DNA of 64,000 bases from Leucothrix arctica (GTDB taxonomy: Bacteria > Pseudomonadota > Gammaproteobacteria > Thiotrichales > Thiotrichaceae): the NCBI RefSeq assembly GCF_003172895.1, contig NZ_QGKL01000039.1:186001-250000 (forward strand). Reading direction: 5' to 3'. The notes below the pieces were generated by a model. The model worked only from the letters and a program-made list of their open reading frames with translations, made no database searches and was not told where the DNA came from. Both the position numbers and the translations under genes were made by a program. Of this stretch, positions 24,476 through 25,895 are shown one piece after another. Positions within the stretch are counted from its first letter, which is position 1; each line of letters starts with the position of its first letter.

Positions 24476-25168
24476 TTATAGGCCGTTGTCCTTCATCAGG
24501 CTGTAGTCAGCCATTATTCGTTTGACGTAATTACGAGTCTCACGAAATGGCGGAATGCCTCCGTATTGATCAACCCTTCCAGGCCCAGCATTGTAAGCTG
24601 CTAACGCAAATTTCTTGTTGCCGTTAAAACGCTTAAGCATCCAAGATAAATACTTTACACCACCATGGATGTTTTGTTCAGGATTCCAAGGGTCTTTTAC
24701 TTTCAAGTGTGCAGCGGTTCCTGGCATGAGTTGCATCAATCCCATCGCGCCAACACGAGACTTTGCTTTCTCGTTGAAGCATGACTCTTGTTTCACTACA
24801 GAATGAATCAACGCTTCTTCAACGCCATATTTGGCAGCATAAGTACGTATAATTTGCCGGTAATGACGCTGCTGCTTCTTTATGAATGCTTTGTTTCCAC
24901 ATTGGAAAACGTTTGCCGCAGAGCTAGCCGCTTTTGTTGCTTTTGCGGGTTTAGCTGTAGATTTTTTGAGTGAAACTGGCCTTACCTTTTTTGGTGTTTT
25001 GTAGGTTTTAACTAGGCGAAAGTTTTTATCATTAAGTCGCTTATCAGTAAGAATTCTCTCACCATTGGCGCCATGATAGGCGTATACGTCAGCCAGCGCA
25101 GTTTGTACGCTCGCAGCCGTAATGATCAGTCCCGTCAGGACGGATAATACAGGTAAATTAAACTTCAT
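24476..25168 (-). CDS. Periplasmic lytic transglycosylase (SLT domain)
   Basis: A 230-residue protein with a signal peptide (about 1-26, cut after ALA). A DUF4124-like N-terminal module is suggested by DVYAYHGANGERILTDKR. A Lys/Ala-rich linker (about 60-88) leads to a C-terminal SLT domain with catalytic Glu in VKQESCFNEKAKS, then GAMGLMQLMPGTA and AAYNAGPGRVDQYGG. It cleaves peptidoglycan glycan strands. It is a stand-alone gene, the second lytic transglycosylase in the window, and differs from slt at 2932-4836 in lacking the helical ring domain. Confidence 0.92.
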   Translation of the reverse strand: MKFNLPVLSVLTGLIITAASVQTALADVYAYHGANGERILTDKRLNDKNFRLVKTYKTPKKVRPVSLKKSTAKPAKATKAASSAANVFQCGNKAFIKKQQRHYRQIIRTYAAKYGVEEALIHSVVKQESCFNEKAKSRVGAMGLMQLMPGTAAHLKVKDPWNPEQNIHGGVKYLSWMLKRFNGNKKFALAAYNAGPGRVDQYGGIPPFRETRNYVKRIMADYSLMKDNGL

Positions 25169-25262
25169 CAGTCAGTGACACGCTCGCTCAACCATGAAAT
25201 AGAGTCAATCGGGGCCTATTTCGCGCTGAAAACGAACTTCCTTTATAAGTTTTTATTATTCA

Positions 25263-25293
25263 TTGAACACGGGGGTTCATGACCGTTTATAGA
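25263..25293 (+). promoter_or_regulatory. Possible promoter for the candidate RNA
   Basis: TTGAAC (25263-25268) and TATAGA (25288-25293) are separated by 19 bases (18 if the -10 is read as TTATAG). They match the sigma-70 consensus at four of six and four of six positions. They would start transcription near 25300, just ahead of the closing helix of the RNA. The -35 lies in a small hairpin (TGAAC/GTTCA). This is a weak call based on spacing and position. Confidence 0.35.
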
Positions 25294-25513
25294 AACAGCT
25301 TATGGACTTAGAGGGGGATTGACTAGTACCAATGGACGGGTGGTCTATCTTTGAAACAGTACCGTTACTCCTTGTGTCGGTGGAGTATTAACGTATGCAA
25401 ACCTAGTATGGGGTCATTGCCATTGCAACCCAGTGGCTCGAAAGCTTGTGGTTACTCATAAGGATTTGATGACCACAACCCCCTAGGGCTATCTTTACGA
25501 TAGCTCTTTTTTT
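25294..25513 (+). ncRNA. Candidate structured non-coding RNA, ~200 nt, with own terminator
   Basis: The 340 bp between the transglycosylase and apaG hold no plausible protein gene but hold dense secondary structure and a plus-strand terminator. I see a long-range closing helix: GGGGG (25313-25317) with CCCCC (25479-25483), continued by TTG (25319-25321) with CAA (25476-25478) around a bulged A. Inside are three strong hairpins. The first pairs ACTCC/GGAGT (25367-25371/25382-25386), extended by CGTT/AACG. The second pairs GCCATT/AGTGGC (25419-25424/25432-25437). The third pairs GTGGTTA/TGACCAC (25448-25454/25470-25476) with loop TAAGGATT. The terminator at 25486-25513 follows directly. I do not recognise it as tmRNA, RNase P, SRP RNA or a known riboswitch. 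6S RNA is possible by size, but its central-bubble layout is not evident. Confidence 0.6.
25486..25513 (+). terminator. Rho-independent terminator of the candidate RNA
   Basis: The stem GGGCTATC / GATAGCTC (one G-U pair, 5-base loop TTTAC) is followed by seven T. The T-tract exists only on the plus strand, so the terminator does not belong to the minus-strand apaG gene, whose stop codon it touches. No plus-strand ORF ends before it. Confidence 0.85.
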
Positions 25514-25895
25514 AGTGCAATATACCAGGAATGGCGAGGGTAAATGGCGCGATAATAGCGTCAAATGTATACCCATCATCTGCAATCATCTGGTAACTTC
25601 CCTGCATCGACCCAACTTGCGTTTCTATCATTGTGCCGCTGGTGTAGCTAAATGACTCGCCTTCTTTAAGGTGAGGTTGTTCGCCAATTACGCCTTTCCC
25701 CTTCACTTCTTGAATGCGACTTTCAGCATCTGTGATGACCCAGTGGCGAGATAATAGCTTTGCCGCTTCGCTACCGTGATTTTCTACCGTTATTGTGTAC
25801 GCAAAAACAAACCTATTATTGTCTTCATCAGACTCAGAGGGTAAATATTCAGTTTTTACGTGAACACGGATGTCGTATTGTTTTATTTCATTCAT
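25512..25895 (-). CDS. apaG: ApaG domain protein
   Basis: A 127-residue single-domain protein with a fibronectin-III-like beta-sandwich fold. It shows the family features RFVFAYTITVENHGSEAAKLLSRHW, GKGVIGEQPHLKEGESFSYTSG and MQGSYQMIADDG. It is linked genetically to Co2+/Mg2+ homeostasis, but its biochemical role is poorly known. Length matches E. coli ApaG (125). The start has no clear Shine-Dalgarno sequence and lies 24 bp from the divergent trmO start. Here it is separated from apaH (14752). Confidence 0.94.
   Translation of the reverse strand: MNEIKQYDIRVHVKTEYLPSESDEDNNRFVFAYTITVENHGSEAAKLLSRHWVITDAESRIQEVKGKGVIGEQPHLKEGESFSYTSGTMIETQVGSMQGSYQMIADDGYTFDAIIAPFTLAIPGILH

What the first reader, a model, noticed from the sequence alone, without database searches (positions are those of the whole stretch)
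25294..25513. Candidate uncharacterised ~200-nt structured RNA with its own terminator
Between a lytic transglycosylase gene and apaG lies a plus-strand terminator with no gene to terminate. Upstream of it I can fold a 5'-3' closing helix (GGGGG/CCCCC plus TTG/CAA) around three well-formed hairpins. One displays TAAGGATT in its loop, resembling a CsrA-type AAGGA site. It does not show the hallmarks of tmRNA, RNase P, SRP RNA or a riboswitch I know. It may be a new sRNA or a divergent 6S RNA.
Basis: partly seen in the sequence, partly recalled or inferred. Interest (0 to 1): 0.68.

Follow-up and report, generated by a model that had tools for sequence, protein, structure and literature searches.

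The report
New small RNA with CsrA-type hairpin
Next to the apaG gene, Leucothrix and its relatives carry a previously undescribed gene for a roughly 100-base RNA, built around one hairpin shaped like the docking site of the global regulator protein CsrA, so it probably binds CsrA and tunes its activity.

Summary
A plus-strand terminator without a gene is real, and a conserved structured RNA precedes it, but only in the 3' half: about 25416-25513 (fold z -4.6). The 5' half (25294-25415) folds no better than shuffles (z +0.9), and the GGGGG/CCCCC closing helix is not conserved in other Leucothrix.

The conserved part is one hairpin (25447-25477) plus terminator. I found the hairpin in 36 of 63 genomes of the family, in 7 of 8 genera, mostly in the same slot beside apaG. 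Its outer stem has compensatory changes. Its upper part is near-invariant UCAY-ANGGAN(N)-KUGA. N is A, G, C or U, and the closing pair drifts among U.U, U.G and C-G. That is the CsrA/RsmE recognition hairpin (CANGGANG). Canonical csrA is in nearly all these genomes.

Rfam gives no match, and 6S RNA lies elsewhere in the genome. CsrB and RsmZ models give no hit above cut-off. The RNA has one conserved GGA site and no GacA box, so it is not a classical multi-site sponge.

Best reading: a new family-restricted sRNA that binds CsrA through a single high-affinity site. Transcription, CsrA binding and targets are inferred, not shown.

The parts
25416..25513 (+). predicted small RNA, about 98 nt (5' end inferred)
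   Evidence: fold z -4.60, three clean hairpins; 3' end set by the terminator; conserved slot in relatives
25447..25477 (+). conserved hairpin: outer stem UGUGGUUA/UGACCACA, bulged C, UCA/UGA, loop U-AAGGAU-U (CsrA-type)
   Evidence: found in 36 of 63 family genomes; covariation
25460..25465 (+). AAGGAU hexaloop, candidate CsrA contact site (ANGGAN)
   Evidence: across 36 sequences N is A 18, G 10, C 5, U 3
25419..25437 (+). 5' hairpin GCCAUUG-CAACC-CAGUGGC; its sequence varies between species
   Evidence: MFE fold; comparable but different hairpins at this place in other genomes
25485..25513 (+). intrinsic terminator, stem 25485-25507 and T run; overlaps the apaG stop codon
   Evidence: terminators follow the hairpin in most relatives
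25404..25409 (+). possible -10 box TAGTAT
   Evidence: position analogous to TANTNT/TACACT boxes in relatives; inference only, no good -35
25361..25370 (+). ACCGTTACTC, conserved upstream motif, candidate regulator site
   Evidence: aligned in other Leucothrix and recurring 93-142 nt upstream of the hairpin in g1 and g8

Best explanation
A small non-coding RNA of about 100 nt, transcribed on the + strand from an independent gene between slt and apaG and ended by its own terminator. Its conserved function resides in one hairpin that presents ANGGAN in a 6-7 nt loop on a UCAY/KUGA stem, which is bound by one face of a CsrA dimer. The most likely effect is that the RNA ties up or recruits CsrA, with low capacity (one site per RNA), while a lineage-variable 5' domain (a C-rich loop in two genera) may base-pair with mRNAs, in the manner of McaS or RgsA. 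Shown here: sequence, structure, covariation, conservation and loss pattern. Inferred: transcription, CsrA binding, and the regulatory outcome.
For: Model R1, built from genera g1, g3, g5 and g8, also finds the hairpin in genomes left out of it, beside slt or apaG (G002, G008, G069; G009 with filters off). Compensatory changes: 12 cells with both sides changed against 3.1 in shuffles, 0/500; 18 against 4.0; the independent g2/g4/g6 set gives 11 against 4.3. The loop keeps A-N-GGA with N free, and C at the 5' closing position always faces G (9 of 9), matching the high-affinity CANGGANG hexaloops cited in PMC4894983 and SELEX RUACARGGAUGU (PMC7652899). csrA is found in 53 of 63 family genomes, and in 43 of 46 good ones. 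The window genome's CsrA reads [52 protein letters not shown], with L4, R6 and R44 intact. The RNA stays intact when its neighbours change or orientation flips (G052, G042, G043), so it is not a UTR of apaG or slt.
Against: Only one GGA site is conserved; RgsA and an RsmY mutant with a single GGA did not titrate RsmA-type proteins (PMC2375449). In 16 of 36 sequences the loop-closing pair is U.U, not C-G. The bulged C and the invariant UCA/UGA are not known CsrA requirements, so another protein may be the ligand. csrA presence does not discriminate genomes with the RNA from genomes without it. Invariance of ANGGA is partly built into the patterns used to collect the g2/g6 members. No transcript data exist here.
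Confidence: 0.66

Rival explanations
1. A base-pairing sRNA whose conserved hairpin is bound by a protein other than CsrA, or serves stability and termination; the ANGGA loop resemblance is incidental.
For: The bulged C and the UCA/UGA stem are as invariant as GGA in the R1 set, more than CsrA needs; in genus g3 the hairpin itself is followed by a T-rich tail.
Against: The free N inside A-N-GGA and the U.U/U.G/C-G closing pair fit the CsrA rules closely; in most genera a separate terminator exists.
Confidence: 0.2
2. A classical CsrA sponge of the CsrB/RsmY/RsmZ kind, extending further upstream with several GGA sites.
For: In G000 the DNA between 25294 and 25415 holds several further GGA triplets.
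Against: Those sites are not conserved in other Leucothrix; only one ANGGA is conserved; no Rfam RsmZ or CsrB hit above cut-off (the weak RsmZ hits inspected show at most two ANGGA); no GacA box; the upstream part is unstructured.
Confidence: 0.06
3. An SD-mimic or anti-SD pairing loop: AAGGA in the loop pairs with 16S rRNA or pyrimidine-rich mRNAs, or acts as the ribosome site of a tiny ORF (AAGGATTTGATG).
For: AAGGA followed by ATG is present in the window.
Against: The second loop base is C or U in 8 of 36, breaking SD pairing; the ATG is ATA in g5 and the frames give unrelated peptides.
Confidence: 0.04
4. Merely a DNA-level element: an apaG terminator or slt promoter region with no separate RNA.
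For: The upstream block 25318-25370 is conserved in Leucothrix and may belong to slt control.
Against: Stem covariation, a strand-specific terminator, and persistence in changed contexts and orientation.
Confidence: 0.04

Closest known systems
RgsA sRNA (Pseudomonas)
   Same: ~120-nt sRNA with a single ANGGA motif and a conserved upstream regulating sequence (PMC2375449)
   Different: no Rfam similarity found here; in RgsA the motif lies in an unpaired region, here in the loop of a covarying hairpin; different genomic slot
McaS sRNA (E. coli)
   Same: small base-pairing-size RNA that binds CsrA through GGA motifs
   Different: McaS has four GGA motifs and binds two CsrA (PMC10729762); no Rfam family matched the window RNA
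CsrB/CsrC, RsmX/RsmY/RsmZ sponges
   Same: ANGGA presented in hairpin loops
   Different: many sites per RNA and GacA/UvrY control; here one conserved site and no GacA box
flaA mRNA leader hairpins (Campylobacter)
   Same: CANGGANG-like hexaloop hairpin for CsrA, supported by compensatory changes (PMC4894983)
   Different: part of an mRNA leader, with two adjacent hairpins

Membership tests
CsrB/RsmZ-type CsrA sponge RNAs | match to the family covariance model | tested here: not met
   cmscan of the window, no hit; RF00166 and RF00018 over 63 genomes, none above cut-off
CsrB/RsmZ-type CsrA sponge RNAs | multiple GGA hairpins | tested here: not met
   one conserved ANGGA per RNA
CsrB/RsmZ-type CsrA sponge RNAs | GacA/UvrY palindrome upstream | tested here: not met
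   window matches at chance level and none upstream of the RNA; 3 of 36 relatives at up to 3 mismatches
CsrA binding site | ANGGA in a 6-7 nt hairpin loop with a short closing stem | tested here: met
   in 16 of 36 the loop closes with U.U
CsrA binding site | physical binding by CsrA | not testable with these tools
   canonical csrA is present, binding not assayed
RgsA (Pseudomonas) | sequence or Rfam similarity | tested here: inconclusive
   no Rfam family matched at E up to 5; it was not checked that RgsA itself is in Rfam
RgsA (Pseudomonas) | dependence on RpoS/GacA | not testable with these tools
   needs expression data
6S RNA | match to RF00013 | tested here: not met
   no hit here; the genome's 6S is at C35:18799-18977
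tmRNA, RNase P, SRP RNA, riboswitches | match to an Rfam model | tested here: not met
   no Rfam or ARAGORN match

The most novel reading that the evidence does not exclude
An obligately single-site CsrA-binding sRNA family in which one CsrA face holds the sRNA while the other stays free, so that CsrA is guided or blocked at specific mRNAs rather than titrated; it would be the main RNA partner of CsrA in a family where no classical sponge is detectable with the two Rfam models tried.
Probability: 0.2. Interest if true: 0.75.

Novelty: new member of a known kind. Interest (0 to 1): 0.52.

Why it matters
It adds an undescribed, phylogenetically well-supported sRNA gene to Leucothrix and its relatives (Thiotrichaceae), where I found no paper in the held library tying Leucothrix to CsrA or reporting a Thiothrix small RNA. 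If it binds CsrA through one site, it tests whether a single high-affinity hairpin suffices for CsrA control in nature, which work on RgsA and RsmY suggested it does not.

Tried and rejected
Rfam at gathering and relaxed thresholds gave no hit. The 29-nt BLAST match in G034 has no CsrA-type hairpin and looks like chance. Class-wide scans with R1 and R2 gave no convincing member outside the family; the hits in G115 and G300 lack ANGGA, and a second hit in G020 also lacks GGA. Weak RsmZ-model hits in four genomes look like strong terminators with at most two ANGGA. Some genome contigs pattern hits outside the family (L054, L056, L063, L066, L067) show no comparable outer stem and terminator and look like chance. 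Paper searches for CsrA+apaG and Thiothrix small RNA found nothing relevant, and Leucothrix+CsrA returned no paper.

Full report
Setting. The window lies in G000:C33 of a genome in the same genus as G003. G003's contig (280,292 bases) has the same length as the named Leucothrix pacifica record NZ_QGKM01000005, which carries the same hairpin. The finding sits between slt (24476-25168, -) and apaG (25512-25895, -), with trmO after it.

Checking the observation. The terminator is real. Folding of the whole claimed region is unremarkable (z -1.55). Split in two, the 5' part 25294-25415 is no more stable than shuffles (z +0.94), and the 3' part 25416-25513 is strongly structured (z -4.60). The alignment of five Leucothrix genomes shows no counterpart of the GGGGG strand, although the CCCCC after the hairpin recurs in three of the five. 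The closing helix is therefore rejected. No Rfam family matches at either threshold, and the genome's 6S RNA is elsewhere.

What is conserved. A direct BLAST match in G004 and the apaG slot in other genomes revealed a hairpin, TGTGGTT-A-C-TCA-TAAGGATT-TGA-TGACCACA in the window. A pattern search found it in 18 of 63 family genomes (one of these, G005, on inspection a chance match), with few reversed-pattern controls. A covariance model, R1, built from 14 distinct hairpins of four genera, found 20 genomes at E <= 0.05. These included genomes not in the model, beside slt or apaG (G002, G008, G069). A broader model, R2, found 29. Reading the slot directly added members below the model threshold, giving 36 genomes in 7 of 8 genera. 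Of the 36, 30 lie within 600 nt of apaG and 24 within 900 nt of slt. G052 has neither in the fetched DNA, and in G042 and G043 the orientation relative to apaG and slt is reversed, so the RNA is an independent gene. Class-wide searches of 369 genomes found no convincing member outside the family.

Structure evidence. In the R1 set, 98.7% of cells pair and 12 cells change on both sides, against 3.1 in shuffles. In the combined set the figures are 18 against 4.0 (this alignment was fitted to the model, so it leans towards it). In the independent g2/g4/g6 set they are 11 against 4.3, with a looser lower stem (84.8% paired). The upper part is nearly invariant: UCA/UGA, then Y and K, then A-N-GGA-N. 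N is A 18, G 10, C 5, U 3. The loop is 6 or 7 nt, closed by U.U (16), U.G (11) or C-G (9); C is never opposite U. Caveat: part of the set was collected with patterns containing ANGGA, so invariance of GGA is overstated. In the slot, G071 has a degenerate hairpin without GGA (L107) and G061 an altered one (L110).

Interpretation. CsrA/RsmE recognises CANGGANG in apical hexaloops (PMC4894983), and SELEX gave RUACARGGAUGU, mostly in six-base loops (PMC7652899). The hairpin here obeys the same rule, including the free base before GGA. A canonical CsrA is encoded in the genome, with the RNA-contact residues I know from the CsrA literature intact (L4, R6, R44; sequence), and csrA is found in 53 of 63 family genomes. 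I therefore infer CsrA binding. It is not a classical sponge: one conserved site, no GacA box, no RsmZ or CsrB match above cut-off. Single-GGA RNAs such as RgsA failed to titrate RsmA-type proteins (PMC2375449). A low-capacity decoy, or a base-pairing sRNA with CsrA as partner (as for McaS, PMC10729762), remains possible. In genera g3 and g5 the adjacent 5' hairpin carries a CCCCC(C) loop in every member, a plausible seed against G-rich ribosome sites, but this part is not conserved across genera.

Promoter. In genus g2 a TTGAWW-N16-TACACT promoter lies upstream of the hairpin in several genomes, with the -10 box about 40-50 nt before it. In the window only a TAGTAT box (25404-25409) is seen and the consensus scan finds no promoter, so an activator may be needed. 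The ACCGTTACTC motif at 25361-25370, shared with genus g8, is a candidate site. This is inference.

Loss. Several g2 genomes (G067, G007, G074, G075, G076) have a short apaG slot without the hairpin and no model match elsewhere, as do the g5 genomes G010 and G016, which suggests secondary loss or divergence beyond the model.

Noticed in passing
window 25221-25280: Between slt and the RNA, AACTTCCTTTATAAGTTTTTATTATT followed by a short inverted repeat is conserved in Leucothrix, with changing stem sequence; it may be an slt 5' UTR or promoter element on the - strand.
   Followed up: partly
window 25318-25370: A block conserved at DNA level in five Leucothrix genomes (GACCAGTACC, GACGRATGG, CTGTCT..GAAT, ACCGTT); a (G)ATGAATGG relative stays with slt in genus g5 even where the RNA is absent or reversed, suggesting slt control or a divergent promoter.
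   Followed up: partly
L037 / L038 / L039 / L040 / L088: In genus g3 the 5' hairpin carries a conserved CCCCCCAU loop, and in some of these genomes the CsrA-type hairpin is followed directly by a T-rich tail instead of a second terminator hairpin.
   Followed up: partly
L090, L091, L092, L095, L097: Several g2 genomes have a short slt-apaG gap and no hairpin; apparent loss of the RNA in one group.
   Followed up: partly
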